Source: Variovorax paradoxus (lineage in GTDB: Bacteria; Pseudomonadota; Gammaproteobacteria; Burkholderiales; Burkholderiaceae_C). From it: DNA of 64,000 nucleotides. A model generated the notes under the pieces. It was given only the letters and a program-made list of their open reading frames with translations, was not told where the DNA came from and made no database searches. The position numbers and the translations under genes are program-made. Shown here one piece after another: positions 12,641 to 42,823 of the stretch. The stretch is taken from NCBI RefSeq assembly GCF_022009635.1, contig NZ_CP091716.1, positions 4,231,001-4,295,000 on the forward strand, written 5' to 3'. Within the stretch, counting starts at the first letter, position 1. Each line of letters opens with the position of its first letter.

Positions 12641-13573
12641 ATGAGATTTCTGGTGGTGGGTGCCGGCGCACTCGGTGGTTATTTCGGCGGCCGTCTGCTG
12701 GAGGCGGGACGCGACGTCACCTTCCTGCTGCGCCCGCGCCGCGCGGCGCAGCTCGCCAAGACCGGGCTGGTGGTGCAGAGCCCGTTCGGCAACCTGCAGC
12801 TTCCCGCGCCCAGGCATGTGCTGGCGGACGGCATCGACGGGCCCTACGACGTGGTCATCGCCGGCAGCAAGGCCTATGACCTCGAATCGACCATGGACTC
12901 GTTCGCCCCCGCGGTCGGGCCGAACACGGTGATCCTTCCGCTGCTCAACGGCATGAAGCACATCGACACCCTGGCCGCGCGCTTCGGCGAAGAGCGGGTG
13001 CTGGGCGGGCTTTGCATGATCTCCGCCACGCTGGACGACGAAGGCCGCGTGCTGCACCTGAACGACACGCACGGCCTGAGCTACGGCGAGCGCGCCGGCG
13101 GCCGCTCGGCGCGCGTCGACGCCATCGCAGCGCAATTCGCCGGCGCGAAGTTCGACGGCAACGCGAGCGAGACCATCTCGCAGGACATGTGGGAGAAGTG
13201 GGTCTTCATCGCCTCGGCGGCGGGCCTCACCAGCCTGATGCGCGCCTCCATCGGCGACATCATGGCGGCGGGCGGCGAAGACGTGGCGCTGTCGATCTTC
13301 GGCGAATGCTGCGCCATCGCCGAACACAACGGCTTCGCGCCGCGCCCGGCGGCCGTGCAGCGCGGCCGCGCCATCATGACCGCCGCCGGCTCGCCGATGA
13401 CGGCATCGATGTACAAGGACATCGTGCGCGGTGCGCAAGTGGAAGCCGATCACATCGTCGGCGACCTGCTGGGCCGCGCGGCGCCGGGGCATGCCGCGAC
13501 GCCTTCGGTGCTGCGCACGGCGTATGTCCATCTCAAGGCCTATGAGGCCCAGCGCGCCCGCGCGGCGGGCTGA
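12641..13573 (+). CDS. Ketopantoate reductase family protein (PanE/ApbA)
   Basis: NADPH-dependent 2-dehydropantoate 2-reductase family, 310 residues. The Rossmann loop is MRFLVVGAGALGGYFGGRLL. PLLNGMKHIDTLAARFGEERVLGG and ISQDMWEKWVFIASAAGLTSLMR are family motifs; the Lys of EKW and the Glu of VEADHIVGDLLGR in the C-terminal half are probable active-site residues. The start ATG at 12641 has CAGGAGC 9 nt upstream. It may be the pantothenate enzyme or one of the many paralogs of unknown substrate. The next gene begins 4 bp after its stop. Confidence 0.88.
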   Translation: MRFLVVGAGALGGYFGGRLLEAGRDVTFLLRPRRAAQLAKTGLVVQSPFGNLQLPAPRHVLADGIDGPYDVVIAGSKAYDLESTMDSFAPAVGPNTVILPLLNGMKHIDTLAARFGEERVLGGLCMISATLDDEGRVLHLNDTHGLSYGERAGGRSARVDAIAAQFAGAKFDGNASETISQDMWEKWVFIASAAGLTSLMRASIGDIMAAGGEDVALSIFGECCAIAEHNGFAPRPAAVQRGRAIMTAAGSPMTASMYKDIVRGAQVEADHIVGDLLGRAAPGHAATPSVLRTAYVHLKAYEAQRARAAG

Positions 13574-13577
13574 CGCG

Positions 13578-14273
13578 GTGCCGCACGCCATCGCCTTCCT
13601 TCACACGGCGCGGGCCCACGTTCCGACCTTCGAACGGCTGCTGGGCGAAGCCGCGCCGGGCATGCCTGCCCGCCATGTGGTGCGCGAAGACCTGCTTGCC
13701 GATGCACGCGCCTTCGGCGTTTCCAACGCGGCGTTGGTCGCCCGTGTTCATACAGCCATGCAGGAAGCCGCTTCAGCCGGCGCCAGGGTCGTGGCGTGCA
13801 CCTGCTCGACCATCGGTGGCATCGCCGAAGACACGCCGACGCACGGCCGATTCCGGGCCCTTCGCATCGACCGCGCCATGGCCGACCGCGCCGTGCGCAC
13901 CGGTCCGCGCGTGCTGGTCGCCGCCGCGCTCGAGAGCACGCTGGCGCCGACCGTCGACCTGGTGCTGTCCGCGGCTTCGGACGCGGGTGTGCGGGTTGAG
14001 CCGGAGCAATTGCTGATCGCCGATGCATGGCCCCATTTCGAAGCCGGCGACATCGCCCGCTATGCGGACACAGTGGCCGCCGCCATTCGCAAGGCGGCCA
14101 GCTCGGCCGATGTGGTGGTGCTGGCCCAGGCCTCGATGGCGCCTGCTGCGACGCTGCTCGCCGACCTGAGCATCGAGGTACTCAGCAGCCCCGCGCCGGG
14201 CGTGGCGAATGTTGCGGCTGCGGCTGCGGCTGCGGCTGCGGCTGCGGCTGCGGCTGCGGCTGCCGGACGCTAA
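13578..14273 (+). CDS. Asp/Glu racemase-superfamily protein with polyalanine tail
   Basis: Member of the Asp/Glu racemase fold, 231 residues, starting at GTG 4 bp after the PanE-like gene. The first-half catalytic region is VVACTCSTIGG, with Cys74 and Cys76. In the second half, where racemases have a second Cys, it reads VVVLAQASMAPAATLL, with no Cys. A one-Cys enzyme of this fold is unlikely to racemise and could be a decarboxylase or lyase, or a different activity. The last residues are 17 alanines encoded by a perfect (GCGGCT)8 repeat plus GCC, then Gly-Arg-stop. The function is not assigned. Confidence 0.75.
   Translation: MPHAIAFLHTARAHVPTFERLLGEAAPGMPARHVVREDLLADARAFGVSNAALVARVHTAMQEAASAGARVVACTCSTIGGIAEDTPTHGRFRALRIDRAMADRAVRTGPRVLVAAALESTLAPTVDLVLSAASDAGVRVEPEQLLIADAWPHFEAGDIARYADTVAAAIRKAASSADVVVLAQASMAPAATLLADLSIEVLSSPAPGVANVAAAAAAAAAAAAAAAAAGR
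14214..14261 (+). repeat. (GCGGCT)8 hexanucleotide microsatellite
   Basis: Eight perfect tandem copies of GCGGCT at the 3' end of the racemase-like gene, encoding Ala-Ala per unit. Because the unit is six bases, slippage would change the alanine tail by two residues without shifting the frame. Confidence 0.95.
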
Positions 14274-14663
14274 TGCTCGTCAACGATCTCACCGCTCAAA
14301 TCTGAAACCGCATGGCTCAACAAGATATCACTTAGTTGCTTCTCGATGCCCCTCCTCGGCAAGCGCATTGACGACCCCATCGCCATCCGGCTTGCGGAAG
14401 CCCTTGGCAATAAGTCATTCAAGAACGTCACACCAGTCGACGGTGCGAGTCTCGGCAGTGACAAGCTCGGCATCAAAGTCGGGGCCAGCGCAAGCCGATC
14501 CCATTTCGACCGGATCGCACCGAGGTATGCGGAAAGGCTGCGGCCATGGCACCACGGGAAGATTCGCTCGATGGCTTGATTGGCCGGATGAATTGAGCAC
14601 CGCGTAGGCCAAAGCGTGCCGGCTCATCCGCTGGATCACATGCACCACGCCTGACGGCCTCAT
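14274..14663. other. Low-quality intergenic stretch, possible coding remnants
   Basis: About 390 bp without a convincing gene. A plus-strand ORF at 14346-14579 (77 residues, MPLLGKRIDDPIAIRLAEAL onward) has an opening that reads like the start of a small cytoplasmic immunity-type protein, but it has no ribosome-binding site and its end (RPWHHGKIRSMA) looks unlike a folded protein. Minus-strand frames contain other short patches. It is best read as decayed DNA between the racemase-like gene and the RHS island. Confidence 0.4.
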
Positions 14664-15001
14664 TTAGGCCTCCACCCAAGGCTCACTGCCCTTGCCGGTA
14701 ACGGCCAGCAGGCGTCTGGCCACTTGGTCATACCAGCCGTCGTCCACGTTCGTGAAAAATGCCGTCCGCCGAGGGAGCCGTAGAGGTCAGGATGACTTCC
14801 GAAGACTGAATGCTCTTAGACCCACTGGCGTTCATATGCCTCGACAACTGCACGGTCCGCTCCAGTCACTCGCTGGCAGCCGAGTCGACGCTGCCGCGTT
14901 CCGAATGCGACGATGCCCCTTGATTGGGGGCAACTCGATAAGGAGATCGATCCGGTCGCGCTGCAAAGCATTAGCCAAATGCTCGACGCACACTTCATAG
15001 A
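14664..15001 (-). pseudogene. Frameshifted remnant of a small protein gene downstream of the RHS locus
   Basis: Three protein-like patches lie in order on the minus strand but in different frames: YEVCVEHLANALQRDRIDLL near 15000-14940, HSVFGSHPDLYGSLGG near 14815-14770, and FTNVDDGWYDQVARRLL continuing GKGSEPWVEA to a stop at 14664. The changes of frame and lack of a start codon mean the gene is broken. Its place, just downstream of an RHS gene and a small membrane protein, suggests an old orphan immunity gene. That function is inferred from position; the family is not recognised. Confidence 0.55.
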
Positions 15002-15006
15002 GTATC

Positions 15007-15336
15007 CTAATTTTTAGGCGATAGCGTTATTAAAAACAAGTTCATCATCCAAAATCCACTCACAAAAATTATTACCAAACCGAGCAAGCCAATGATAAAC
15101 ATCCTAGGCGTTCTATGCGATCGACTACGAAGCAATAGCACCAAGAGGTTTGGCAGGCATACAAAAATCACAGAAAATGCCAGGACCTGAAGAACAAGCG
15201 CCGCATTAGCCATTAAACTCAAGAACGCTCGAAAATGCTGCCTCAAAAAAGACACTTGATCTAGCGCAAAGATCAACAGGCAAACAATAAAAAATATATA
15301 TTCCGCAAATTCCAAACCTCGATATGACTTTTTCAT
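15007..15336 (-). CDS. Small membrane protein, candidate immunity protein
   Basis: A 109-residue protein from ATG 15336 (MKKSYRGLEFAEYI); longer starts at 15348 and 15354 are possible but lack a ribosome-binding site, whereas GATGAGA lies before 15336. It has three hydrophobic segments: about residues 10-27, 42-70 (LMANAALVLQVLAFSVIFVC region) and 80-102. Base composition is clearly AT-richer than the chromosome, matching the putative toxin ORF just upstream (15368-16222). No homology is recognised. The position immediately after an RHS toxin module, and the membrane location, fit an immunity protein against a toxin acting at the envelope. This is inference. Confidence 0.6.
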   Translation of the reverse strand: MKKSYRGLEFAEYIFFIVCLLIFALDQVSFLRQHFRAFLSLMANAALVLQVLAFSVIFVCLPNLLVLLLRSRSHRTPRMFIIGLLGLVIIFVSGFWMMNLFLITLSPKN

Positions 15337-15367
15337 TTCAAATCTCATCTTCATGAAACGCAAAAAA

Positions 15368-16222
15368 TCAATCTCTTATTTTTACCAAAAAATCACTTTG
15401 GCGCCCAGCTTGCCAAGTTATTTTCAAAGGAAGTAACCCTACTAAGTTGAACTCCCTTGCCAAACCTTGCTTATGAAATGCAGCCATAAAATCGTCTTTA
15501 ACATCCACCCCAAAGGAGGTAAATTCTTGCCCGTTATTCCAATTATAAGGATCAAAGTAATGTAAATCAAAATTCATTGAAAAACTATTTCCAGTTCTTA
15601 CCACGGTGGCATTTGACCATCCAGAAAAAGTGCCGCTTGCACGCATCCAATTCTCATCACCCGAGAACCGCCTTTGCTCCATGCGCTGAGAAGAAAATGA
15701 AAGCGGGATGCCCTCAACAGCATTATCGGAGGCAAAATTCATTGCGGCATTTTGCTGCGACAGATAAAAATCTCTCCCTGCGTCAGTTGTCTCAACAATT
15801 CGCTGCAAATTTACCCTGTAATCAAGCCCGGTGTTTCCGAAATAGTGCCTCAGATGATCTGCAGCATCCGGATAAATAAGTCTTGCATAAGGAAGTATGG
15901 TCTGCTCTACAAATCCCTTTTTAAAATAAGAAGAGATTTCAGGTGTCTCGGATCCCCACTGCCCACTGCCAAGATCTACTCTCTTTTTTGGGCCAGAAGA
16001 TCCTAAAACAAAAGCGGGAGCAATATCATCCGAATCCCCCGCGCTTGTCACTACACGGGCCGTGCCACGGTCTCGAGGAAAAGGCATCAATTCATTTTTA
16101 TCTTTTTTTCCATCAACCACCCGAGCCCACTCCCCTTGCTTAAGAACATCGTCTATAAACCCAACTTTAATAAGCGAAAAATTATCAGCCCCCCCCTGAT
16201 TTCCAATAAATTCCATAGCCAT
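15368..16222 (-). CDS. Putative RHS-associated C-terminal toxin domain
   Basis: A 284-residue open frame with low GC, in the same frame as the RHS core gene but separated from it by the module at 16185-17216, which lies in another frame. It can be read in two ways: as the C-terminal toxin tip of the RHS polyprotein joined across a G8 tract at 16189-16196, or as its own gene from ATG 16222 (MAMEFIGNQGG), which has AGAGGAA nine bases upstream. Conserved-looking features are NFDLHYFDPYNWNNGQ near residues 220-235 and AFHKQGLAREFNLVG near 249-263, rich in D, H, Y and W as in enzymatic toxins. There is no signal peptide. The activity is not known. A small membrane protein gene follows. Confidence 0.6.
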   Translation of the reverse strand: MAMEFIGNQGGADNFSLIKVGFIDDVLKQGEWARVVDGKKDKNELMPFPRDRGTARVVTSAGDSDDIAPAFVLGSSGPKKRVDLGSGQWGSETPEISSYFKKGFVEQTILPYARLIYPDAADHLRHYFGNTGLDYRVNLQRIVETTDAGRDFYLSQQNAAMNFASDNAVEGIPLSFSSQRMEQRRFSGDENWMRASGTFSGWSNATVVRTGNSFSMNFDLHYFDPYNWNNGQEFTSFGVDVKDDFMAAFHKQGLAREFNLVGLLPLKITWQAGRQSDFLVKIRD

Positions 16223-17216
16223 CGGAAAATTCCTCTGCGCTCCATTTCGGAATGGCCGAATGTGCGCCGACCGCGCTATCTACGCCCTCGATTTCGAGGC
16301 GTTTTGCCGCCACACCGATACTCATCTGCATATCATCGTTCCACGCTTGAACGGTCGATGTCGAAACGCTGAGTCCGAGACCTCCGCCCAGCTTAAGACC
16401 GCCCCCAGCAGGCGGCGCGGTACCAAACAAGTCGATCTGGCTTGGTGGTCCGTTACGCGTCTCCACCGGCCCCAGCGTCTGTGCCCAGAAGTCGTCGCGA
16501 AGCTTTTCTTCTGGGCCCACATAGGTCGAGGAACTGCTGCTATTGGCTGCGGCCAGACTATCGCCCAACGCATTGCCAACTGTCACAGCCGCCCCCACCG
16601 CGTCTCCTATGACGCCCGGCAGGGCCCTGCCAATGCTTCCTCCGCGCACCGCCGCACTCATCAGGCCGCCGGCCATGGTGCCGACCAGGCGCTGCCCTGC
16701 CAGATCCCAGTTAGCGCCCTTGGCCCAGTCACCGGCCGATGCCGACACAAACCCTGAGGCTGCGCTGGCGGCCACGCCCCTCCAGTCAAAGCCCTTTTGC
16801 AGCCCGGTGGCGATGTTCAGCCCTTGACTGGCGATGTTGCCGATGGCAATGCGCCCGGCAGCCGCTAGGTCCCCCCCGTTGCCCGCGAGCCATGCGCCCG
16901 CACCGCCGCCGCTGAGCCAACTCGCCACACCCGCGCCGACCCCCGCGCCAAGCGCTCCCAGTGCCACGCCCCTCCAGCTGAAGGAGTCCTGCGCCCCGAT
17001 GGCGATACCCACGGCCTGGCTGGCGATGGAGCCAGCCGCACCTCCGATGATCGCGGCACCAATCGAGCCGCCCATCAGTGCGCTACCGCCTGCGGTCATG
17101 ATTCCGCCCAGTCCCGCGCTACTCAGAGCAGCACCGATACCACCTTGTGCGGCACCTATTGCAATCGACGCGACTCCTGCCGTGAAGACGGTCGCTACCA
17201 CAGCGATGATCGCCAC
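16185..17216 (-). CDS. Glycine/alanine-rich hydrophobic module, out-of-frame continuation of the RHS protein
   Basis: Open frame of 343 residues from a GTG at 17216. It overlaps the end of the RHS gene by 22 bp in a different frame. Residues 1-130 are long Gly/Ala-rich hydrophobic stretches (VAIIAVVATVFTAGVASIAI, GGSIGAAIIGGAAGSIASQA), partly repeated, followed by a linker and LFGTAPPAGGGLKLGGG. In related giant RHS proteins such a segment directly follows a PKGKGGG-CGGLG junction, and that junction appears here if the G8 tract at 17242-17249 had one more G. This is therefore probably the C-terminal part of the RHS protein, disconnected by an indel. It ends at a TGA just after a second G8 tract. 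Confidence 0.65.
   Translation of the reverse strand: MAIIAVVATVFTAGVASIAIGAAQGGIGAALSSAGLGGIMTAGGSALMGGSIGAAIIGGAAGSIASQAVGIAIGAQDSFSWRGVALGALGAGVGAGVASWLSGGGAGAWLAGNGGDLAAAGRIAIGNIASQGLNIATGLQKGFDWRGVAASAASGFVSASAGDWAKGANWDLAGQRLVGTMAGGLMSAAVRGGSIGRALPGVIGDAVGAAVTVGNALGDSLAAANSSSSSTYVGPEEKLRDDFWAQTLGPVETRNGPPSQIDLFGTAPPAGGGLKLGGGLGLSVSTSTVQAWNDDMQMSIGVAAKRLEIEGVDSAVGAHSAIPKWSAEEFSDGYGIYWKSGGG
16189..16196 (-). repeat. G8 homopolymer at the junction of hydrophobic module and putative toxin
   Basis: Eight G on the coding strand. With eight, the upstream frame reads SGGG and stops; with seven it would read straight into ADNFSLIKVGF of the putative toxin ORF. It is either a phase-variable tract, a frame error, or the real end of a gene followed by an overlapping start at 16222. 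Confidence 0.8.
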
Positions 17217-20200
17217 GATGACTGTGCCCAGCCCTCCGCATCCCCCCCCTTGCCCTTGGGCGCCGGCAGCGGATCAGGCAGCGTCGGGCTCGTGTCCCCC
17301 ATCGCCTTGCCCGGGTCGTACGGCCGGAACGTACTGCTGGTGTTGTGCAGGTTAGTGACCTTGTTGGGCACCTGCAGCACCGTGTTCTCCACCAGCGCAG
17401 CCGATGGCTGGCCGTCCAGCCCGTTGGCCTCGGCCAGCAGGTACCACAGCGTCGCATCGCCCCACAGCGCCCGAGCGACCCCCTCCAGCGTGTCGCCCTC
17501 GCGCACCGTGTAGCTGCCCGGCGCCGGGCCCGGGAAGCCCGCGTTGATCGGCTGGTAGTTCTCGTCGAAGTCCGCCGAGTTCGTGGGCGTGAACTTGCGG
17601 TACTTGTCGTCAGGGCTTTGCGTTGCCGAGCTGCGCGCGAGCTGCTGGGCGTAGTCTTCGCGCTCCACGCCGTCGTTGCCCACGTTGCCCACGCGCTTGC
17701 CGTCGAAGTAGAAGTAGCGGTGGTCGCGGCTCTTGCTCGCGCCGCTCACGTTGCCGTCGGCCCCGATCTTGCCGCCGATGAGCTCCTGGCGCTGCAGCAC
17801 CTGGCCTTCCGCATTGGTCCAGTACGAGAAGCTGCGCGGCGTGGTCGCGTTCAGGTCCGTGGCCGTCTTCAGATGCCCGTTGACGTCGTAGCCGAACACC
17901 GAATAACCAGGCGGCTGGGGCCGCTTGGGGTCGTAGCCCGTGCTCACGGGATCGAGCGTGATCGAGGTCTGCTTGGCGCTGTCCCACCAGTCGTAGGCAT
18001 AGTTGCTGATCATGCGGGTGATGACGACAGCGGGATCCTGGGCACTGGGGTTGAAGTTGTTGAAGGCGTTGGTCAGCGAATCCACCTTCGACAGCGTGCC
18101 GTCCTGCATCAAGGTGTAGGCCGTCGTCGTGTCGGACCACTTTCTGCCATTCGTTCCCTCGGTCAGCCGCCGTTCCACTTCCACGGTGAGCTGGTTGTCC
18201 TTGTTCCAAGTGCGATCCTTCTGCGAGCTGAGCGTCTGGTCCGCGTACAGTTCCTCGTAGCGTGTCACCCGTCCGGCCAGATCGTTGGTGCGCCGGCTGC
18301 GAAGCACGCCGTTCATCTTCATCGCGGTCAGGTGCCCCGTGCCGTCGTAGTCATAGTCCTCGCGGTGCCCGTCGCGCGCATAGATGGCCGCCTTGCGCTG
18401 GCCGGCGTTGTCGTACTCGATCGTCACGCCGTCGCCCGACGCGCCACGCCAGATCTGCCCGTTGACCATCTGGCCCATGGTGGTGGTGAAGCGGTTCATG
18501 CCGTCGTAGGCGTACCAGTAGTCCTGTACATCCTTTCTCTGGTCCACGACGTTGATGTAGGTGCTGAGCACGCGCCGACGGTTGCCATTGGCGTCGTATT
18601 CGTAGTTGATCATGTAGCGCGCATCGTCGATCGTCTTGACCCGGTTATAGGCGTCATAGGACACGCGCGACCACTGGAACACCACATTGCCTGTAATGGC
18701 CTTCAAGCCCTCGAAAATGCGATTGCCGTTGTTGTCGTACTCGAAGATGCTCTCGGTCGACACACCCGCATCGCTCACCTTGCGCAGGTAACCGTTGTCG
18801 TAGTAGCTGTAGGCGATGTTCTGGCCCGAGTTGCCGGTCTGCGTGGCGATCAGGCCTGACCAGTTGTAGCCGTAGGTGAACTGATGTCCGCCCAGGTCCT
18901 GCTTCCACATCGTGCGTCCGAACACGTCGTTCTTCAGCGTCTGCGTCCTGCCGTTGGCGTCCGTCGTGGTATTCGTCCAACCGCCGGTGTTCACTCCGCC
19001 TGCCGAACCGATGCTGTTGTCGTAGGTGTAGCCATAGTTGACGGTGGCGCCCTCCGCCGAGATGTAGCGCGTCACGCGGCCCATGCTGTCGTAGTAGGTC
19101 CGCACACGATAGTCCAGCGCATTCACCTGCGCGATGCGCTGACCGAGAATGTCGTACTCATAAGCATCGACGGCCACGCTTCCGTTGGCGTTGACGGGCC
19201 GCTCAACGCGCTTGAGGCGGTTGTTGAAATCGTACTCGTTGCGGGTAACGCGGCCGATCTCGTCCGTCACGGTGCGCAGGTTGCCGAAGACGTCGTAGGC
19301 CTTGCGTACGACCGCGGAGGTTCCAGCGGTCGCGCCGGGGTGCCACTCGGCCACGGCCTGCCCCGCGGCATTGATCTGCACGGTGCTCTGGTTGCCGTTG
19401 GCATCGCGTTTGCCGACGAACTGCCCGTTGAGGTCGTAGCTGTAGTGCTCCGTAGGCCTGATCGCTTGCCTCTGGCCGTTGGCCAGCGTGACATCGACGA
19501 CCGGCCCGATCTTGTCAATCAGCAGGCCCAGGGTGTTGTAACGCAGGTCGTTGACATTTTCCTTGCCGTCGATCTCCTTGACGACGCGTCCGAAGGCGTC
19601 GTGCTCCTGACGGCGCTGGATCACCCAGCTGTGGTTGATGATGTCCTGGCCTGGCAGGTTGGGAATGGCCCAGCGCACATCGCTGTTTGCGGTGGTGTTG
19701 TTCAGCCGAAAGTAGCCCTCCCCGTTACCGATCATCGCCCCCGAGGCGTTGTACACGTCATACAGGAACTCGTACTCCTTGTCCGGGTTCAGACCGTTTG
19801 CGGTCGCATCCCACTTGAAGGCGGTACCGATCTTCACTCGCGTGGCTGCGACCTCGGTGAAGTCCTTGTCGGTAGCGCCCTTGTCGCGGTAGCGTAGCTT
19901 CATGCTCCGGCCTTCGGATATCTCCGGATCGAAGGTCATCACTTGGTGCTTGAGGTTGCCGGTCAGCCTGGCCTTGGTGCCAATTTTGCTGAGCGCGCCG
20001 ATCGTGGCCTCGCCGGTGATGTCGGTCATGATGAATCCGTCGGCATCGCGCGCCACGGCATGCAGCCTGTAGCTATAGAGACTGCGTTTATCCGGAATGA
20101 GGTTGGCGGCATCCCACACCCATTGGGCGATATCGCCCGCGCGTTCGCGCGGGATGGTGATGGAGCCCTTCAAGCCCCCCGGGCTGAGCGGCTCGTAGTC

Positions 20201-23200
20201 GATCTGCAGGGTCTGGGCGTCGATTGGAATGTCGCGAAAGGTGATGCTCGAAGGCAGTGCCGCCAGGGGGCGCATGTCGTAGTACGACACGCCCGGGTTG
20301 ACGGTTCCCTTCAGCCTGTCGACCACCACATTGCGGCCCATGTCCAACACCTCGATGATGACGTCGCTGGTACCGCCATCGAACTGAACTTCAAAGCGCC
20401 CCGTGGCACCGGCGGGCCAATACGTCCTTTGCGAATACTCGCCTTCGCTGCCATTGGGCCTTTGCAGAACCCGGATGGCGTGACCGTTGATCCTCATGCC
20501 TGTGAAGTGCGCCACGTTGTCGGTCGTAAAAACCGGCTGGGCTGCCGCCACGGACGATGAAGACTGGCGCGTGGCCGGGTCGTATTGGATTGATTGGCGA
20601 CGCACGACCGTGCCGTCCGGCTGGGTCACGACCAGCAACAGCTCCGTCGGTCCGCCCAAGCTCTCCAGGCGCGTGAAGTACGAGCCGTCGATGGCGACGT
20701 TGTTCAGGCTGGAGCCGCCCTGCCCGGCCTTGAAGATCGGCAAAGATTGCGAGAACGGACTGTTCGAGTCACGCGGACGGCTATACAGTTGGATCGTGTC
20801 GGTGTCGCGCGCCTCGCTCGCAGTCAGGCGCATGAAGGTGCCGCTGAGCGTTTGATCCTGAGTAGGCCAGGGCAATTGCCGAATTGTTCCTGTCGATACG
20901 ACGACATCCAGACCGCTGCTCTGCACCGTGGCGATGACCCGGATGGGCATCAGACCGCTGTAGGCCAGACCGCGATGCATATACATGCTGACGACCGGGA
21001 ACGGCGGTGTGTTGTACATCGGATGCACGACCTGCGGCCATGTCGTCACCCTGCCAAGGAATTGAGTCGTGCCCGCGACCTCGATGCGCCACGTCATAGC
21101 GCCGTAGATATTTTCGATGTTGGAGGTCCAGTCGCCAGCCGAACCGATCAGGAGGTCCGTCACCCCGACGACCACATCAGAAACGTGCCTCGGGTTGCCC
21201 GGTATTCCGGCTTCCCCGTTGGTGATCGGGCGGATGTTGCCCCCTAAGATCGGCATGCCCAGCACGCTGACCGCGCCCGTGGCCGACCCGTCAGAGGGCC
21301 CTGCGATCCAAGTAGAGTTGGCTTCCGCCAGCGCTGGCGCCACATCGATGTCCAGCCCGCCGAACTTGCCCGAATCCACGTTGATGGGCGCGGCGAACAT
21401 CTTCAGGTTTGGCCGCGCCGCGTCCATTTTGGGCTGCATCACGCTCACGACGCGATTGTCCTTGTCGTAGGACGTAATGGTGATCAGGATGTCCGGATTG
21501 GGATGGCTGCCGTCGCCCGCCATCTGGTCCCATGTCATCGCGCGCAGGTCCACACGTTGCGATTCCAGTTGCAACGTGGCATTGCCGGCCAGGTCGTACA
21601 TCCATGCCTTGTTGACGCCGCCCTTCGAATTGGTGCGCCACAGGCGCCCGGCCTTGTCGTAGTCGTAGTACTCCTGCGCCTGGCCCTGGGCATTGCCACT
21701 GCCGGTGCGCTTGCTGGCCAACTCGCCCCAGGCGTTGTAGGTGAGCGTGATCGTGTTGGCCGCATCGAAGACCGGCATGTCGGCAGCGTCGCGGCCACCG
21801 GTGAAGCGACGCGCCTCGCGGTTGGCCGCGTCGTAGGCGATGCTGACGATATCGCGCGAGACCGCGCCGTCCGCGTCTACCCGGTCCGTCATCTGGGCCG
21901 TCGTATTGCCGTTGGCGTCGCGCCCGTAGGTGACGGTCTCGCCCTTGGCGGTGGTCATGGACGTGCGCACGCCGGTAGCGTCGTAACCGTAGCGCACGAT
22001 CTCGTCGTCGCTCTCCACGGCGTTGTCTGTGCCACGCCGGATCTCACGGCGCACATTGCCCAAGCCGTTGAGTTCGTAGTCGGTGACCTGGCGCACCGCA
22101 TTGCCGTTGAAGTCGGCCGCACCCGGACGCTGCACGCTCAGCAACCGCCCTATCGTGTCATAGCGCATTTCGCTGCGCTGACCTTGCGCATCGATGGTGG
22201 CGGTCTTGTTGCCCATCGCGTTGTACTCGGTACGCTGGGTGGCGCTGGTGGCGCCTTCGCTGAGCGCGCCGTTGGCCGCAACTCTGCCATAGGCCACGTT
22301 CAGCCTGGACTCACTGCGCACGCGCGCATTGCGGTCGTAGCTGTATTCGGTGATCTGGTCGTTCAGACCAGGAGTGAACTTCTGCAGGACTGCATCTACC
22401 GAGGTGCTCTCGCTGAGACTGCCCAGCACGATTTCCTTCGCAAAGCGGGTTTCGCGCAGCACGGCGCCGTTTGCATCTCGCTCCCAACGCACACCGAAGC
22501 CCATGGCATCGACTTGCAGCAACTTCTGGCCCAGCCTGTCGTACCAGGTGAGGGTGGCCGCATCCTTGCCGTTGTGTTCGCGCACCACGTTGCCGTTGGC
22601 GTCGTAGAAACTGCGGTTGACCAGATCGCTCGTGACCGCCATGTTGTACTGGTGGCCCGAAGCGTCATAGTTGCCGGACTGGATGCCAGCGATGGTGCTG
22701 CTGAGCACCCGGTTGTTGGCATCGACCTGGTAAGTGGTCAGGCGCACGTTGGCTGCGTTCACCGGTGTGGGCAGTGCATCGCCCACCGGCAAGATCAGTG
22801 CATCGCCGTACACGCGCTGTGCCATGACATTGCCGGTCGCGTCATAACTCCAAGTGCTGAGCGTGCCGGTAGCACTGACTTCGGCCACCTTGCGGTTGGT
22901 TCCGTCGAACCAGGTGCGCGTGCGCCCGCCGTTGGGCTCAACCACGGCAATGAGGTTGCCGCTGGCGTCGTAGCTCCGGGTGCGCGTGGGCGCGATGGTG
23001 CTCCAGCCCTGGCCGTCCACGTAGATGCGCACCTGCGCCTGACGCTGCTCGACCTCGCGGTTCAGCCCGTCGTAGCTGAACTGCGTGACACGCTGCTCGG
23101 GCAGGCCGACCGCCTCGGTCGTGGTGGCCCTGTTGCCGAAGGCATCGTAGGCGTACTGGTTGCGCACCGCCACCGACTGGCCGGCGGCGTTCCTGCTCGT

Positions 23201-26200
23201 GATGGGCAGCGTCTCGCTGGCCACTCGCCCGAGCTGGTCGTAGGTGTAGGCAGTGAGGCCGCCGAGCTTGTTGGTAAGCGTCTCGCGCTGGCCCAGGGCG
23301 TTGTAGGTATAGCGCTCTGCATTCGACTGGGCGTCGATGGTCCTGGTGAGGCGCCCGGATGCGTCGTATTCGAAGCGCGTGAGTGCGTCGCTGGGGTTGG
23401 CGCCCGGAAGCGCAGGCGGCTGCGCGATCTTGTAGGTGCCGCTCACGCGGTTGAAGTGGCGCTTGACGCTCAGCGTGTGGCCGAGCGCGTCGTAGGTGGT
23501 CGCGGTGGCATAGCCCTCGGGGTCGACGCTCAGCGTCACGCGCCCAGCGGCGTCGAAGTAGTAGAAAGCCGAGTTGCCACGCGGATCGGTGATCCTCACG
23601 ACGCGGCCGTTGGCGTCATAGTCGGAGCGCGTGACGCCGCCAAGAGCATCGGTCACGCTGAGCTTATGGCCGGCCGCGTCGTAGTCGATGGTCGTCGTAT
23701 AGCGCGCTGCAAGCGCCTGTCGCTGGGCTTGACTCAGGTCGGAGGCCTTCAGGGCGCCACCCGCAGCATTGACGTACTTCAGCTGCAGTCGCTGGGTGAG
23801 CGCCCAGGCGCTGTCGCTTTGCGAGAGCTCGACGCCGCGCGCATCGATGGTGCGGGTCAACCGGCCGATGCCATCGAAGACATACTGAGTAGTGGCGGCC
23901 TCTGGCTGCCCCAGGGCCTCGGTCTGGCTCGTTCGGTTACCAGCGGCGTCGTAGCCGTAGGCGGTGATCTGAAGCGGACGGCCGGACACAGAGGCCAGTG
24001 CGATGGCCGCATCGAGTTTCGCCTTCTGGGTGTTCGGCGTTGACGCAGGCACAGCGACGGGATAGCGCACGACGTAGGACGGCCGACCTTGGGCGTCGTA
24101 CTGGCGCTGCACGGCGTAGCCCAGCGCGTCGATGGTGAGTGTCTCACGGCCCATGGCATCGTAGAAGATGCGTGTGTGTTGGTCGCGCGCGGTATCGGCC
24201 TTGGGAACGGGCGCTGTGTCGGGCGCCCACTTGTTCATGTCGACAGTGTTGGCCCAGGCCGTGCGCTCGGAAACGCTGCCGTTGCCGTCGCGCTTGAATG
24301 TGACGACACTGCCCATCGCATCGACCGTGGCGCTAAGGCGGCCGCCCTGGTCGTAGACATTGAATTGCTGTTGGTCTTGGCCCGGGGTCTGACTGGCCAG
24401 CGCTTGCAACTGGGCCACAGTGGGCGCGGCGCCTAGTCCTTTTGTGCTGACGGGCCTTGCATAGCGCGTGGTCAGCGTGATGCGGCCCGCGCCGTCGTAG
24501 CTGTTCTTCTCCAACTGGCCCAGCGGACCCAGGGTATAGACCAGGCGCCCGGCGCTATCATAGGCAAAGCGCGTGACCTGACTCTGTGTTTTGGCTGCGA
24601 TGAGCACCGGTGTCGCGGTGGTCGGTGTAATGTTGCTGGCGACGTCCGTCTGCTCGAGTTGGTAGCCTGTTACGCGAAGAGGACGAGGATCGTTCGAGGT
24701 GAATTTGACGACCCCGAAGTACGCCATCTCGCCCGACGCCACGCCGGTTGTTGCCACACGATATTGCTTGCCGCCCAGATGCTGCACGGTATACGCGAGC
24801 GGATCGGCCATGCGCCCCAGCGAAGCGAAGGCAAACGAGTTCGCGGCGTCCCGCGCGTTTGTACTCCCAAAAGATGGCGGCAAACCGTCTTCCATCTCCA
24901 CGACCACGGACATTGTGTAAGTCGCACCGAGTGTCAATGACTGGTGCAACTTATAGGCGCCCGCATACCCTTCGCGCGGATCGACCCCGATCCTGAGCGC
25001 GCCTGCGAAACCCTCCATCTGCGATGCTCTAACGGCACCGATCCAGTTCTCCGTATCACGCAATCCATTGGCGAATTCGCTGTGCGTGAAGAGGTTGGTT
25101 CCTGCCGGCTGGTCGTTGATATAGGCGCGGCTGATGATGTTGCCGCTCTTGTCGTAGTTTTGCGACGTGACCTTGCCCACCCCGTCGGTGTGCAAGAGCT
25201 GTCGACCGGCACGGTCGTAGACATAGGTGTCGTGCGGGTCTCTGGCGGGCTCTGCCACCAACGCGACGGCGGCGGCCAGCGCATCGGTGGTGGCAGCCGT
25301 CGCCGCGGGCACTCGCTTGCTGTAGGCAAAGCGTTCGGTGACGTTGCCGCTGGCATCGAAGACTTGCCGCACCACCGCGCCGGTGCCGTCGATGCTGTGG
25401 GTCTTTCGCCCGAGGGCGTCGTAGACGCTGCGCGAGCGCTGGTCGTGCGCGTCGTCGGCCACGACCGGTGGGTCGATGGCGCCGTGCCACTTGCCAAGTT
25501 CGATACGCTGTGCATAGGCGCGGCTCTCGACCACGTTGCCAGCGTCGTCGTACCGATACTCGACCACCGCGCCCGTGGCGTCCACGGCAAAGCGCAGCCG
25601 GCCATCGCGGTCGTAGCGCCGGCTCTGCGTGGCGGCCAGGCCCAGCGTGGGCAGCGCCGCCTGCATAGCCGACAAGCTCGGGGCGGTACCGTTCCAGGCA
25701 GCCACGGGCACGAACGCGGCATATGTGGTCTGGCTGCTCAGGCGGCCTTCGGCGTCGTAGCCGCTTTGCTGGACGCCGCCCATCGCGTCGATGGTGAAGG
25801 CCAGCCGTTTGGCCTGGTCGTAGATGAAAAGCGTGGCATTGCCGCTGGCATCCACCGCCTTGATGACGTTGCCCTCGGCGTCGTAGGCATAGCTGCGCGT
25901 GAGGTTCAGCCCCAACGGATCGACCTGCTCCTTGATGCGCCGGCCGGCGCCGTCATAGGTGTAGCGCGTCAGGCGCCCATCGGGGCCATGGACGCTAAGG
26001 GCGGTGCCATCGCTGTCGTGGGTGTAGACGGTCTCCAACTTCAGGCCGACATATGCGCCGTTGGAAGGGTCGAGGGTCTGGCGTACGACCTGGCCGTTCA
26101 GGTCGTACGCCGTGGTGGTGACGGTGCCGCCAGGATCTGTCACGCTGATCGTCTGGCCCTTGGCGTCGTAGAGGTAGCTGGTGACGAGGGTCAGGCCCCC

Positions 26201-29200
26201 CGGATCGACCGTGCGCGTGAGAAGCCTGCTGACAGCGTCGTAGCCGTAGGTCGTGACGGTGCCCCTGGCGTCGGTGGTGCTGAGCTTCAGGCCGATCTTG
26301 TCGTAGGTGGTGCTGGTGCCGACGCCTTCGGGCGCCTGGGTCCGCAGCAGGTTGCCGCTCTTGTCGTAGCTGTAGGTGGTGGTGTTGCCGCGGCCATCGG
26401 TGACGCTGGTGGTCTGGCCCTGGCGGTTGTGCAAGGTGGTGACCGAGACACCCTCGGGGGTGGTCACGGTGACGCTGCGGTTGGCCACGCTGTAGGCGTA
26501 GCTGGTGACGTTGTTCAACGCATCGCGCTGGGTGAGCACGCGATCGAAGGCGTCGTAGGTGGTGGTGCGCGTGGCACCGGTGGCGTCGGTGGTGGCAACG
26601 ACACGCCCGAGCCGGTCGTAGCGCAGGCTGGCGGTGTTGCCGTTGCCGTCGATGCGCGTGTCCGGGCGGCCGAAGGCGTCGTAGCCGGTGCGCCGGGTGA
26701 GGCCCGCGCCAGTGGCGTCCGACGTGGTCGAGACCTGCAGGCCGCGCCGGTCGAAGGTGACGGTGTTGGTGATAACCTGGCCGCTCAGGCGCGTCCGGCT
26801 GCTGGCGATGGCTTCGCGAAACGCGTTGTAGGCGTAGCTGGTGACGCCGCCCATCGCGTCGGTGCTGCTGGTCAGGGTGCCGCTGGCGTTGTAGGTCTTC
26901 AGGACATGGGTGTCCTTGGCGGGGTCGGCCATCGTGGCCAGTAGTGCCTTCAGCGCATCGGTGTTCAGTCCGCCGGGCGTGGCCGTTCCAAGGGGCGTGA
27001 GGTCGATCCGACTGCCGTAGACGATCTGCTCGGACACCTGGCCGTAGGCGTTGTAGCGGCTCTCGGTGACTTCGCCCAGGGCGTTGACGGTGTAGGCCAG
27101 CCGCCCGAAGGCGTCGTAGAAGAACAGGGTGCGGTGGCCGTTGGCATCGGTGGTGCCGGTGCGCCGGCCGGCGGCGTCGTAGGCGTGCGTCGATCCGTTG
27201 GCGCTCCAGCTGGCCAGCGGCGCGTTCAGGGCGACGGCATCGCTGCCGCGGCCGTCGAGTTCGGCGATGAGGTGGCCCTGGATGTCGTAGCGCAGGCGCT
27301 GGATGCGCTCGTCGGGCGTGCCCGCCGCGGTGGTGGTCTGCACGAGGCGCCCGGCCACGTCGTAGGTGAAGGTGGTGACCGTGCCCTCGGCATTGGTGCG
27401 ACTGAGCAGTTGGTTGGCCGCGCTCCAGGTCTGGGTGATGCTCTGGTCCTGGGCGCTCGGGTCCGGGCGCACGCTGGCGAGGGTGGCGTTCGCGCTGCCC
27501 GGGTTCCTGGCCAAGCTGGCGTAGCGGCGGGTCTGGGTGACGTTGCCGCGTGCGTCGTACACGGTCTCGGTGAGGTAGCCCTCGCCATCGACCTGCCCGA
27601 CGGCCTGGCCGCGGGCGTTGTAGAAGGTGTAGGTGCGGATGTCGCCGTCGCTGGCCGCGGGGCGCACACCGGCCAGGTCGCCGCTGGCGCGCGCGATGGC
27701 CACCGCCATCAGGCGTGCCGAGACGCTGGCGAAGTTGGCCGCGCGGTTGGCGTAGCGGATGCTCTGCACCTGCTCACCGGCTGCGTTGTACTTGTACTCG
27801 GTGAGGTAGCCCTCGGCGTCCAGGGTGCCCTGCACTTGCCCGTTGCGGTTGAGCAGTTGCGTGACGGTGCGGTCCTGCGTGATGTCCAGGCCCACCAGCA
27901 CCCGGGGGGTGTCGGGTGTGCCTTCGACGGTCTGGGTGAAGGTGATCGCGCCGTCGGCGTTGGCTTCGTCGCCTGAGTACGCAGCACTGAAGGTATGAGT
28001 GCCGGCAGGAATTGGAACGCCGCGCAACGTGGCCGTGCCGTCCGCCGTGACCGCCACCGTGCCCAGCAGCGTCATGCCGCTGTAGAAACTCACCAAGCCC
28101 GTGGCAGCGGTCTTGCCCACAACTCGCACCGACAGCGCGCCGTCCTTGGCGATTACGGGCGTTGTGAGATTGGTCAATACAACCGGCGAGCCTGCGACCT
28201 GCACCCACGAATCAGCGGTTGTTTGCGATGCCAAGTAGTTGTCGTCACCTGCATAGCTCGCCGTGAATTTGGCCGTTCCCACAGGCAAACTGCCGATGGA
28301 CAGCGTGGCCACACCGTTCATCAGCGTGCCTGTACCAATGGCGATGCCGTTGCGACAGAAGGTCACTGCGCCGTTGGCGCGCGGAATGTTCGGGCTGTTG
28401 GGAGTAGCTTGAATTGCCGCCGTCAAAGTCACGGATTCACCCGCTCCGACAGACTGCTTAGAAGAGAAAAGATTGACCTGCGATTTTGTCCGCGTGATTG
28501 CGATGGATTGACTGCTCCTTTGACCAATAAAAATGGGCAAGTCATCTGTTTGCTCAACCACAAGACTGATAACAGTCAGATCATGCAGGCCCTTAGCCAG
28601 GTTAACAGGAAGCCTCGCAGTATCAGGATCCGCGAGCCCTCTAGCCTCTAAATAATGATTTACCGTAGAAGTTAGAATTTGGCCGTCAAAATAAAAACGA
28701 TCATCCCAAACACCCTCCCCTTTTACCGTAATGGCGGGATTAAATCCCGCAAAGGATTCACTCACTCCAATCGACTGATTAATTTGCTGCGAAACGGTAA
28801 ATGCAGTGTAGGCGTCTCTTTCCGGATTTAGGGATGGCGACAAATTCAACTTCAATGAGAGAATACAACTCTGAAATTTAGAATCCCCTGTATACGCTAT
28901 ATTGAGAATGCCACCGGCCTTGATCAACGCTGAGCGCTCCACCCAGATATTCGTAGTACCCTCTGCATTGACAAAGTAACCCGTGCCTAAACCTACGGAG
29001 TTCCCCCCAAATATGTAAAGCGCCCCAGTCGCACCATAGCCGACACCAGCGACATGCAGCCGGACATTCAGTAGGTTGGTTGTTGGCAACCAGGGATCTA
29101 CGCTAACGATCAAGCTCGTGGGGGATCTCTTGTTAGCGCTTGCGGCATAGTCCACATTTCCGGCATAAGCTACTGTGAACGGCCCTGTAGCACCAAGCTG

Positions 29201-32200
29201 ATTGACCTTGAACGTTGCCCTGCCATCGACCAATGTTGAAATGCCCAGCACAGACTGACCCGAATAAAAAGTGACGGACCCAGTCGGCAAATATGTCGAG
29301 CCAGCAGGAACGGTAATCCGAGCAGTCAGCGTCGAACTGCCATCCACGTTTTTGCTGGACGTTAGCGTCGCCTCGGTCGGTATAGGTTTTGCACTGAATA
29401 TTCGAGGTGTCGAAACCGTTGGTGCGTGCAAGATATCACCAGAGTATTCGGCACGAAGTGTTTGCATGCCTTCGGGCAAATCATTAACTACAAGATTTCC
29501 GAAGCCATTTGATAAAACTATCGATCCTATAATTTTGTTTCCGGCATAGAAAGTGATTTGTCCGGAAGGCATCAACCAACCCCAGTCTCCTGCAGAGTCC
29601 GGCATTTTCACGTCTACCGAAAGGATGACCGAACGAGAGCCCGCTGAAGGGTTGCGCTGAACTCCCAGCGTAGCGGTAGTCAGTATGGGCGTAATTGTTT
29701 TCTTGACGGCCTTGGATACGCTCGCCGGTCTCAAATCATCACCCGAATACGCCACTCGCAAATTATGTGTGCCAATGGACATCCGGTCTGTGGCTAACGT
29801 CGCTTTTCCATCAACAACAACTGCGCTACCGATGACTGTCTCGCCATCGAAAAAGGTCACCATGCCTCTAAGGCCAGCGCCGTCTACAGAGGCGGTCAAG
29901 ACTGCAATGAGACCATAAGACGTTGACTCGGCGTTGTTGACGCTCAGTGAAATGCCTCCGAGCGTGGAGGGATCCACCCCCAGATCGATGTTGGCCCCCT
30001 TGAGCAGCGGAGCCACATCGATCGGCTTGGCCAACTGCGTCACGGCCAGGATGCGCGAGGCCCCGTCATAGGTCGTCTGCGTCACATAACCCAGCGCATC
30101 CACCTGCCAGGTCAAGCGGCCGACGTTGTCGTAGAAGCGCCAGACCCTCTGATCCTGCGCCGCAGTTGCCGGCCGCAGGGTCGCCAGGCTGGTCGTCGTG
30201 TTGTCCGCCGCCCATGCGGTCGTGGGCTTGCCCGCGCCATCGAGCAGTTGCGCCAGCTTCTGCGCAGTCAGCTTCGTGGCGTAGGCCACGCTCTGGCGCA
30301 ACTGCCCGCTGGCGTTGTAGACATACTCGACCAGCGCACCCGTCGCATCGATCTCGGCGATCTTGCGGTTGGCCTCGTCGTACAGCATCCACTTGCGCAC
30401 GCCCGTGGGGTCCTGCGTCATCAGCAGGTTGCCGTTCTTGTCGTACGCGTAGGTGGTGGTGCCCAGCACGCCGCTGCCGGCGCTTTGCTGCGTGACGCTC
30501 ACCAAGCGCCCGGCCTTGTCGTACGCCGAGATGCTCACCAGACCGCTGGCGACGGTGACGCTGGTCCTGCCGCCGGCATCGTCGTAGCTGGTGACGGTGG
30601 TGTTGGCCGTGACGCCGTCCAGCGACGGCGCGGACACCGACAGCACGCGCCCCAGCCCGTCGTAGACGTAGGTGGTCGTGCCGCCGCCGCTGGGCTCGAT
30701 CTTCTGGAGCAGGTTGCCGTGCTGGTCGTACACGTACTGCGTCCTGGCCGCCGTTGCCGTCGTCCCCGCCCCCGTGGCATCGACTTCGCCATACGTGGTG
30801 GCGCTGCTGAGCGAGCCTCGCGCGTCATAGGCGTAGTCCACGCGCTCCGTGCGGCTCGGATCCTGGCCGCCCAGCCAGGCGAGCATCTGCGCCTGCGTGG
30901 GCACGTCCGTGGTGCCCAGGGTGGAGACCCCGTAGGCACTGCCCACGTAGCGGATGGTGCTGATGCGCTGGCCGTAGCTGTCGTAGCGGTGCTCGGTGAC
31001 GTTGCCCTGCGCCGTGACCACGAAGCGCAGTTGCAGCGCGTTGCCCGGTGCATAGACGTAGCGGGTGGTCTCGGGCAGCGCCGCATCCTTGCTGAAGACG
31101 CCTCGGCTGACGGACGCGTCGGCGTAGATGGTGTCGCTCAGCAGCTGGTTCGCGCTGTTGTAGGTCCGGGTGTGGGTGTTGCCCGCCGAGTCGACCTCCT
31201 TCAGCAGGTTGCCGTTGGCGTCGTATTCATAGGCGAGCTCGCGGCCCTCCCCGTCGGTCATCCCCGTCACGTTGCCCGCAGCGTCGTAGCGGTAGCTGAC
31301 CTGCGACAGGCCCGCGGCGTTGCCGGCGGTGACGCCCTGGCGCACCTGCAGCAGATTGCCGTCGGCGTCGTACAGGAAGGTGCTGCGCGCGCCCTGCGGG
31401 TCCGTCACGGTGGTCGTGCTGCTGGCGCTGTCGTAGGCAAAGCGGGTGATCTGCCCCAGGGCGTCCGTGACGGTGGCAACCTTGTAGCTGCTCCCGGACA
31501 GCACGTAGGTGAAGGCCAGGGCGGTGCCGTCGCTCTGCGTCACCGAGGCCACGCGCTTGCTGGTGCCGTCGTAGTTGTAGGTCGTGACGTAGGTCTTGCC
31601 GTCGGCAACGCTGTTGTCCTCCGGGCTCAGGTCGACGGTGACGCTGGACAGCCGGTTGGCGCCATCGTATGCATAGCGCACCCGCGTGAGCGTCGCGCCG
31701 CCGGTGGCGACCGTACGGACCTGGGTGAGGTTCGTGCCGGTGTAGTCGAAATAGGTGGCCTCGCCATTGGCGTCGACCACGCTCTTGAGCGTGCCGTTCG
31801 CGTTGTAGCTGTAGCTGACGGTGTTGCCGTTGGGGTCTACGGCAAAAAGAAGTCGCCCCTGCCCGCTCGCGTCGTAGCGCTCCACCAGACCGCTGCTGCC
31901 ATCGGTCCAGACATAGCGGGCGTTGGCCGCGTCGTAGGCGATCGTGTCGAACGCCCCGGCGCCTGCGCTGCTCACATACAGGTTCCGGGATGCGCTCCAG
32001 GCGTAGACCGCGGTGGCGCCGTCTCTGTCCGTGCGCGCCAGGGTGCTACCAGCAGTGCCAGCGGTGCCCGTGAGCACAACCTTCTGTCCGTGCGCGCCGA
32101 CGCGCCAGTTGTCGCCGTTGTCGTCGTCGAACAGCCCCTGGCTGTTGTAGGTGCGCACAGTGGCAATGTCCAGCCCCCGGCCCACCAGCCTGTCGTCGAG

Positions 32201-32353: not shown

Positions 32354-32742
32354 TTGACGGCCTCGTTTGTTGTTCCGCGCCGCCTCCACATCAAGGGGCG
32401 CTCAGAACAACTCATCCAGCTCGAACGCAATGTGTTTAGCCAGACGATCGAAAGGCCGAAGAGCAACCAAGGTCAATTGCACAAAGTCATCAAAATGTCG
32501 CTGCAGAGAGATGGGCGATTTCGCAACGATCGCCCCAAATTGCCGCCGAACGGCTTCTCGCTAAACAATATGGACAAATCGTGGATAGCTTCGTTGAGCC
32601 GCAAGCACAAGCTATGGCTCGCATGCCTGCCAAGCAACGGCAATGAGCCGCGCAGTAAAGTCCGAACAAGCCCAGAGGGTGTCAACGAACCGGACTCGTG
32701 CTCAGCACGCCTTGCGCTGGGCTGGCACTGCGGTAGCAGCGG
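32354..32742. other. Intergenic region upstream of the RHS gene
   Basis: 389 bp without a convincing gene. It is somewhat AT-richer than the surrounding chromosome. The only sizeable ORF (32473-32685, minus, 70 residues) has no ribosome-binding site or recognisable sequence. The RHS promoter should lie here, but no clear -35/-10 pair was identified. Confidence 0.5.
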
Positions 32743-40102: not shown

Positions 40103-40666
40103 TCAGGGCCTGTCACGCTCCGCCCGCGCCCTCCTCAGCCAGACCTCCGCTTCGCCTGGAGGAATCTGCCCTTCCGCTGCCAGCCTCTTGAGCCTTCGCT
40201 CATCAGCGCGATTCAACGCTTCCTTGAGAAGAGCCATCTTGCGTTCTCCGCACGGACGGCATTCGTAGAAGCCCGGCGGGCTGGCAGTGGGGTTCATCTT
40301 TTCGTCGAACTCTCCCGTGCTGATTCGCCCGGTGGGCTCGATGCCCATGGCGAGGACTCTGCCGTTCTTGAACGTAACAAGGGCACTCCCCTTGCATCCG
40401 GTGGTTCCCATGTTCTCGGGGTCGTAGGACTTCCACGAAATCCTGCGCATGTACCTGAGGGCATACCGCACATCTTCCTCTTTCAGAACGACATCGTCGC
40501 AATTCAGAAAGTCTTTGTCCTCCCAAGCGCTTCGGTGCGAAGGATGCGTGACTTCCACCTTTTTGACATAGCTAACGGGATATCGCCAGTCGGCGGCCTG
40601 CGCCGGTAATGCCGCTGCAGCAGCGGTCAGTGCCGCCGCAGCCGCAAGGACGTTGGTCTTCTTCAT
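40103..40666 (-). CDS. Secreted four-cysteine protein, third of three tandem paralogs
   Basis: A 187-residue protein with a Sec signal peptide (MKKTNVLAAA... ending LPAQAA near residue 25). The mature part has four Cys: Cys56 in FLNCDDVVLKEEDVRYALRY, Cys91 in TGCKGSALVTFKNGRVLAMG, and Cys136/139 in FYECRPC, followed by a charged helix KMALLKEALNRADERRLKRL. The pattern Cys..LTE-DV...VSW..Y....C.G.a...NGR resembles small periplasmic proteins seen next to toxins in other proteobacteria; this is recalled, not searched. It is closely similar to the two genes upstream, including the intergenic DNA. Probable role: periplasmic immunity to the amidase at 41877, by context. Confidence 0.8.
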   Translation of the reverse strand: MKKTNVLAAAAALTAAAAALPAQAADWRYPVSYVKKVEVTHPSHRSAWEDKDFLNCDDVVLKEEDVRYALRYMRRISWKSYDPENMGTTGCKGSALVTFKNGRVLAMGIEPTGRISTGEFDEKMNPTASPPGFYECRPCGERKMALLKEALNRADERRLKRLAAEGQIPPGEAEVWLRRARAERDRP

Positions 40667-40709
40667 TTTCTTGAGTTGACGGTCAATAGCTCTCGCCGAA
40701 CGGCAAGCA

Positions 40710-41270: not shown

Positions 41271-41313
41271 TTTCTTGAGTTGATGGTCAATAGCTCTTGT
41301 CGAACGGCAAGCA

Positions 41314-42542: not shown

Positions 42543-42823
42543 GCGGTGACTCCCTGAAGATTTCCGTTTGGTTTTTCGACTCTTCGCGAGATGCGGCCGC
42601 ATGCCGGTTCAAGGCATGGACCACGATCTCGCGGCGCATGCTATGGCGGGGTCTTCAAGGCAGATGCACGGTTTTCAAAGATTGATCGAATTCCTGACAT
42701 TCAGCACATTCGATTTCCGGGCACTTGTAAATCACTAAAAGCAACTGCAAACAATCAGTCCCGTAAACGAAAAAACCCGGCGCCAATACGGCGCCGGGTC
42801 TTCTCGGAAAGCCCGAAGGTCTG
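42543..42823. other. Intergenic region between amidase and molbindin genes
   Basis: About 280 bp, AT-richer than average, without a gene. It holds the presumed promoter of the amidase operon and the terminator at 42770-42799. Nothing else was recognised. Confidence 0.6.
42770..42799 (-). terminator. Intrinsic terminator of the ssu-metY-mop operon
   Basis: A perfect 10-bp stem ACCCGGCGCC / GGCGCCGGGT with loop AATAC (42775-42799), followed by a T-run on the minus strand. It lies 25 bp after the molbindin stop and marks the end of the long sulfur operon. Confidence 0.92.

What the first reader, a model, noticed from the sequence alone, without database searches (positions are those of the whole stretch)
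16189..16196. Second G8 tract, with opposite frame effect, plus an internal start site for the putative toxin
Seen: the module frame stops right after this G8, and the 284-residue ORF beyond is back in the RHS frame, so the two tracts have opposite shifts. ATG 16222, lying before the tract in the toxin frame, has AGAGGAA nine bases upstream, so the toxin part may also be made alone. Two equal homopolymers bracketing one module suggest a two-switch arrangement: core only, core plus module, or full length.
Basis: partly seen in the sequence, partly recalled or inferred. Interest (0 to 1): 0.75.

Follow-up and report, generated by a model that had tools for sequence, protein, structure and literature searches.

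The report
RHS toxin gene interrupted at G8 runs
This looks like an ordinary bacterial contact-toxin gene with its likely immunity gene beside it, whose reading frame breaks at two short runs of G; whether the breaks are a reversible switch, a mutation or a sequencing slip is not settled.

Summary
In detail: a G8 run (minus strand) lies at 16189-16196, the 343-aa module frame stops just after it, the 284-aa ORF beyond is in the RHS-core frame, and the shift is opposite to that at the G8 run at 17242-17249. The locus is a polymorphic RHS toxin of a Variovorax genome: RHS core with LysM, hydrophobic pre-toxin module, C-terminal toxin, then a small hydrophobic ORF, probably the immunity gene. In relatives these parts are usually one frame: 26 of 30 copies at the core-module joint; 23 of 31 complete-ended module rows run on 301-551 codons. 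So the breaks are peculiar to this copy. The first G8 run is not conserved and no RNA structure marks either. No gene was found split at the other G7+ runs followed up. I favour slippage mutation at two unstable runs, leaving the toxin end unread; assembly miscounts remain possible. A purposeful two-switch system is not excluded but unsupported. The internal start is weak: 295 of 1662 ATGs in the window have as good a ribosome site. The toxin domain matches no Pfam or NCBIfam family; one relative sits near a VgrG-like ORF.

The parts
17195..32389 (-). RHS core ORF, 5064 aa: DUF6531, RHS repeats, Ig-like repeats, LysM near the C-end
   Evidence: Pfam on three pieces: 17255-17797, 28100-30589, 30590-32389
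17366..17512 (-). LysM domain at the end of the core
   Evidence: PF01476, E 4.1e-5, residues 96-144 of the piece 17255-17797
17242..17249 (-). first G8 run, at the core-module linker; the core frame's stop codon ends 47 bases after it
16185..17216 (-). pre-toxin module ORF, 343 aa, hydrophobic at its start
16189..16196 (-). second G8 run (the finding); module frame stops right after it
15368..16222 (-). 284-aa ORF: C-terminal toxin (inferred)
15392..16018 (-). conserved domain (residues 69-277 of the ORF), no Pfam or NCBIfam family
16220..16236 (-). ATG 16222 with AGAGGAA before it; probably fortuitous start
15007..15363 (-). 118-aa ORF with several hydrophobic stretches, 4 bases after the toxin ORF: candidate immunity gene

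Best explanation
The locus is a polymorphic RHS toxin-immunity locus. By design it would be one very long protein (RHS shell with LysM, hydrophobic pre-toxin module, C-terminal toxin domain) followed by a small membrane immunity protein. In this copy the frame is interrupted at two G8 runs by shifts of opposite sign. The most likely cause is slippage of DNA replication at these runs: a first slip silenced the toxin end, and the other run then drifted freely. As the sequence stands, translation of the core ends about 15 codons after the first run, so the core would be made without module or toxin. Shown here: anatomy, frames, one-frame state in most relatives, lack of conservation of the first run. 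Inferred: toxin and immunity roles, slippage as the cause, the order of events, and that the state may revert.
For: One frame at the core-module joint in 26 of 30 copies and in 57 of 61 classified copies, 71 examined; one frame past the module for 301-551 codons in 23 of 31 complete-ended rows, while the window has 113 in the module frame plus about 272 in the toxin ORF after the run. Codon use slightly favours the module frame before the run and the toxin frame after it. Profile matches place the first break at 17243-17273, overlapping the run. Module, toxin and small ORF are open throughout, so the breaks look recent. In the linker the 3 classified copies with a G run of 8 or more, the window among them, are out of frame and none of the 57 in-frame copies has a run above 6. 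Elsewhere in this genome 27 G7 and 3 G8 runs lie in open frames (not counting the G7 run in the module), and no gene was seen split among the frame changes followed up. In four toxin-domain relatives looked at, a small ORF follows; one lies near a VgrG-like ORF.
Against: No reads or sister strains, so real slippage and miscounting cannot be told apart. The run-length/frame association is partly circular, since an indel in a run changes both. Frame breaks also occur with no run above 6 (L041 at the linker; L043 inside the module). G8/C8 runs also sit in open frames of relatives (L042 core, L037 tail). One of the 10 unclassified linkers has a G7 run (L115). The second break can only be placed by open frames and codon use within about 94 bases, and the codon model used after the run was trained largely on the same stretch.
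Confidence: 0.5

Rival explanations
1. Assembly artefact: the lengths of one or both G8 runs are miscounted and the real gene is one intact frame, an ordinary RHS toxin.
For: Both breaks fall at the only two G8 runs of the window; the ORFs are otherwise open and most relatives are in one frame.
Against: The two shifts are opposite, so a uniform over- or under-count does not explain both. Of the 79 G7+ runs of this genome, 28 G7 (one in the module here) and 3 G8 runs lie in open frames, and no gene was seen split among the 16 frame changes outside the window that were followed up. But only 3 other G8 runs lie in open frames, so the check is thin at that length.
Confidence: 0.25
2. True phase variation: the two runs are contingency tracts that switch the RHS protein between core only, core plus module, and full length.
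For: Two G8 runs in one gene cluster in a genome with only 11 such runs; both at joints between parts; long runs with frame changes recur in the same linker in two other genomes (L026, L033 third copy). C-terminal switching by homopolymers is described in Helicobacter canadensis (PMC2823697, abstract).
Against: The first run is not conserved in relatives; the three other frame-changed copies have short cores (open frames 436-590 aa) and two of the three come from one MAG, so none is a full-length locus. No population data.
Confidence: 0.15
3. The toxin is a separate gene translated from ATG 16222, independent of the RHS protein.
For: ATG with AGAGGAA upstream; stand-alone relatives of the toxin domain exist (L044 235 aa, L054 255 aa).
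Against: The 4-base RBS match is reached by 295 of 1662 ATGs; codon use upstream of the run slightly favours the module frame; in most Variovorax relatives a C-terminal part of similar length is fused.
Confidence: 0.06
4. Programmed recoding (transcriptional slippage or ribosomal frameshifting) at the G8 runs makes the full-length protein from the present DNA.
For: Precedent for transcriptional slippage on an A11 run in tssM of Citrobacter rodentium (PMC4256274, passages).
Against: No RNA structure beyond shuffles near either run (z 0.00, 0.30, 0.42); the first run is not conserved; two opposite shifts would be needed in one message; 8 Gs is shorter than the 11 As of the precedent.
Confidence: 0.04

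Closest known systems
Polymorphic RHS toxin-immunity systems (family features partly recalled, partly from PMC4287609 passages)
   Same: RHS core, conserved pre-toxin module, C-terminal part that differs between relatives, small gene directly downstream; tandem cassettes in a relative (L033)
   Different: this copy is interrupted at two G8 runs; toxin domain in no Pfam or NCBIfam family; route of export not established (Pfam was run on three pieces of the core only and showed no PAAR)
C-terminal phase variation at homopolymers (Helicobacter canadensis, PMC2823697, abstract read)
   Same: run late in the ORF changes the C-terminus
   Different: no evidence of length variation here; two runs in one gene cluster; different organism
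Transcriptional slippage in T6SS tssM (PMC4256274, passages read)
   Same: homopolymer before a stop in a secretion-related gene
   Different: A11 not G8, experimentally shown there, a T6SS machine gene rather than a toxin
Stand-alone toxin-domain ORF near a VgrG-like ORF (L044)
   Same: 33% identity over residues 67-276, followed by a small ORF
   Different: stand-alone there; C-terminus of an RHS protein here

Membership tests
Polymorphic RHS toxin | RHS repeat core | tested here: met
   PF05593, E 6.2e-39 on the piece 30590-32389
Polymorphic RHS toxin | conserved region followed by a C-terminus that varies between relatives | tested here: met
   module relatives in 17 of 101 genus genomes, toxin in the window's own genome only (1 of 101)
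Polymorphic RHS toxin | core and toxin in one frame in this copy | tested here: not met
   met in most relatives
Polymorphic RHS toxin | immunity gene directly downstream | tested here: inconclusive
   118-aa hydrophobic ORF 4 bases after the toxin ORF; a lone relative in G006; protection not tested
Polymorphic RHS toxin | toxic activity of the C-terminus | not testable with these tools
   needs expression in a laboratory strain
Phase-variable (contingency) gene | homopolymer run in the coding sequence at a frame break | tested here: met
   two G8 runs at the frame breaks; their mutability was not measured
Phase-variable (contingency) gene | length variants in the population or between strains | not testable with these tools
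   one genome per species held, no reads
Phase-variable (contingency) gene | tract conserved at the site in relatives | tested here: not met
   first run only: 57 in-frame copies have runs of 2-6; the second run has no aligned counterpart because the toxins differ
Programmed frameshifting or slippage | conserved slippery run | tested here: not met
   first run only
Programmed frameshifting or slippage | stimulatory RNA structure nearby | tested here: not met
   three stretches of 64-74 bases, z 0.00 to 0.42

The most novel reading that the evidence does not exclude
G runs at the joints of an RHS toxin act as two contingency tracts: one gates the delivery module, the other gates the toxin, giving a population of cells that carry the same RHS shell with no payload, a module-only tip, or the full toxin. 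The same linker is a recurrent site of long G runs and frame changes in copies from two other Variovorax genomes.
Probability: 0.13. Interest if true: 0.65.

Novelty: new member of a known kind. Interest (0 to 1): 0.33.

Why it matters
If the runs do vary in the population, contact-dependent toxin delivery would join the traits that bacteria switch by replication slippage, and some RHS 'pseudogenes' would be off states. If not, it is a caution: an RHS toxin end can be lost from annotation through a run of eight Gs. The toxin domain itself is unnamed in the libraries searched and is shared between an RHS tip, a gene near a VgrG-like ORF and plasmids of Streptomyces, Polymorphobacter and Mycobacteroides.

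Tried and rejected
Rejected: the first G8 as a conserved slippery site; nearby RNA structure; widespread homopolymer damage in the assembly. The first codon score for that check was too strict and was replaced, which covered 77 of 79 runs; one search added the other two. One search's GC-rich codon model labels the AT-rich second run of the window a strand change. Runs classed there as closed on one side, stop within, strand change or no call were not followed further. Led nowhere: Pfam, NCBIfam, PHROGs and PDB sequence searches with the toxin, genome contigs and viral-contig scans for it, plasmid search for the module. A weak hit to the module tail (L058) is a chance match: it lies in an antisense frame of an unrelated ORF. 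The structure prediction of the toxin ORF never started.

Full report
Where it is. The window is G000:C1:4231001-4295000 of a 7.95-Mb genome in two contigs. All parts lie on the minus strand: RHS core 32389..17195, module 17216..16185, toxin ORF 16222..15368, small ORF 15363..15007.

Observation. The G8 run at 16189-16196 and the other at 17242-17249 are there. The module frame ends right after the run of the finding; the 284-residue ORF is in the frame of the RHS core (coordinates modulo 3, by hand), so the shifts are opposite. Shuffles of the window give as many G8/C8 runs (2 seen, mean 2.81), but the whole genome has only 11 distinct runs of eight or more (14 overlapping matches).

Anatomy. 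Pfam on three framed pieces of the core finds DUF6531, RHS repeats, Ig-like repeats and, near the end, LysM. The module starts with a hydrophobic stretch and has relatives in 17 of 101 genus genomes, the window's own included. The toxin ORF has none in the other 100, one further relative in 399 order genomes (L044, 33% over residues 67-276), one further genome with a match, holding a stop, in 229 class genomes, and 8 of 72,556 plasmid records. Four members align with invariant positions such as D-x-Y-N-W and a downstream H; they match no Pfam or NCBIfam family above chance and no PDB sequence. In L044 the domain is a stand-alone ORF followed by a 128-aa ORF and a VgrG-like ORF (Phage_GPD, E 4.8e-65); in the three plasmid records whose context I looked at (of 8) it is also followed by a small ORF. 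The 118-aa ORF of the window is hydrophobic, has one relative in the other 100 genus genomes, and that genome has no toxin relative; it shows no similarity to two of the four other small ORFs, the only two compared. Toxin and immunity are therefore inferences from position, not shown.

Are core, module and toxin normally one frame? I picked 30 non-redundant copies in which both core end and module were matched: 26 are in one frame; the four others are the window, the third copy of L033, L026 and L041, the last two from one MAG. A wider count over 71 copies from genus, order and genome-contig loci, made unique only by local sequence so that a few may be the same gene on two contigs, gave 57 in frame, 4 not (window included) and 10 in which the module start was absent or not recognised. 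Past the module, 34 loci gave 36 rows (35 copies, since L035 and L133 are the same gene); 5 run off the locus; of the 31 complete ones 23 continue for 301-551 codons, and 8 are shorter: the window (113), L014, L018, L040, L041, L042, L043 and L136. L043 changes frame inside the module with no long run. So the usual state is one frame, and the window's toxin ORF, about 272 codons after the run, supplies an end of the expected size.

Are the runs the cause? The core profile matches down to 17243 and, in the other frame, the module profile from 17273 on, so the first break lies where the two overlap, and the run lies there too. The second is bounded only by open frames, about 16185-16279. Codon scores before the run favour the module frame over the toxin frame by a small margin (0.9 against -1.8 with the toxin-derived model, -5.3 against -13.8 with the core-derived one); after it the toxin frame wins (14.3 against -12.0), though that model was trained largely on the same stretch. 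In the linker the 3 classified copies with runs of 8 or 9, the window among them, are out of frame, while the 57 in-frame copies have at most 6; the fourth out-of-frame copy has 6, and one unclassified copy has 7. This is partly circular, because an indel in a run changes both. A C8 run in L037 and a G8 run in L042 lie in open frames.

Miscount or mutation? I classified the 79 G7+ runs of the genome by codon use (77, the other 2; runs listed, DNA). 28 G7 (one of them in the module here) and 3 G8 runs lie in open frames. Sixteen runs outside the window show a frame change on one strand: in 9 of 16 the upstream frame is already closed before the run, and in 7 of 16 the two frames overlap at it. 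Of these 7, three (L049, L154, L172) join two different protein families, three (L159, L194, L202) show a family on one side only, and L053 gives nothing clear: no family was seen split across a run. The remaining classes were not followed. The opposite signs of the two shifts also speak against one systematic error. But with only three other G8 runs in open frames miscounting is not excluded.

Switch? At the first joint the run is not conserved; at the second there is no counterpart to compare, since relatives carry other toxins. There is no RNA structure beyond shuffles, and the internal ATG has a 4-base RBS match shared by 295 of 1662 ATGs. As the sequence stands the core stops shortly after the first run, so the second shift does not rescue the toxin. 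After a first silencing slip the other G8 run would be the likeliest next place to drift (inference). Adaptive phase variation would need length variants in reads or isolates, which I could not see.

Literature. Eight searches of the held library with RHS, phase variation, poly-G, homopolymer, frameshift, slippage and related terms (lists capped at 10-20 papers where more matched) showed no title or abstract reporting G-run switching of an RHS toxin; that is not proof that none exists. I read passages of PMC4256274, PMC4287609 and PMC9263626, and the outline and abstract of PMC2823697. PMC4287609 and PMC9263626 mention frameshifted maf toxin loci in Neisseria lactamica.

Verdict. Observation right; interpretation partly right. 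A known kind of toxin locus in an off-frame state, cause open between slippage and miscount, with a true switch as the bold but unsupported reading.

Noticed in passing
window 40103-42602, minus strand: An Amidase_2 ORF (41877-42602) is followed by three similar ORFs of 186-188 aa with signal-like starts (by eye) and no Pfam family; looks like an amidase effector with three tandem immunity paralogues (inference).
   Followed up: partly
window 28100-30589: A stretch of the RHS core, partly of lower GC, carries Ig-like repeats (Big_3_5, E 5.4e-48) beside RHS repeats.
   Followed up: partly
G000:C1:2807274-2808209 (L022, L079): A second RHS locus of the same genome is in one frame across the core-module joint, open frame 5901 aa.
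   Followed up: partly
L033: Three core-end plus module copies in tandem at a contig start of Variovorax sp. CAN15; the third changes frame at a G9 run in the linker.
   Followed up: partly
L044:3-2145: Toxin-domain relative as a stand-alone ORF upstream of a small ORF and a VgrG-like ORF.
   Followed up: partly
window 14214-14261: Eight GCGGCT repeats (poly-Ala in the frame of the ORF 13431..14273).
   Followed up: no
window 14300-15006: About 700 bases between the small ORF and the next operon with no ORF that I would call a gene by eye; possibly remnants of older cassettes (speculation).
   Followed up: no
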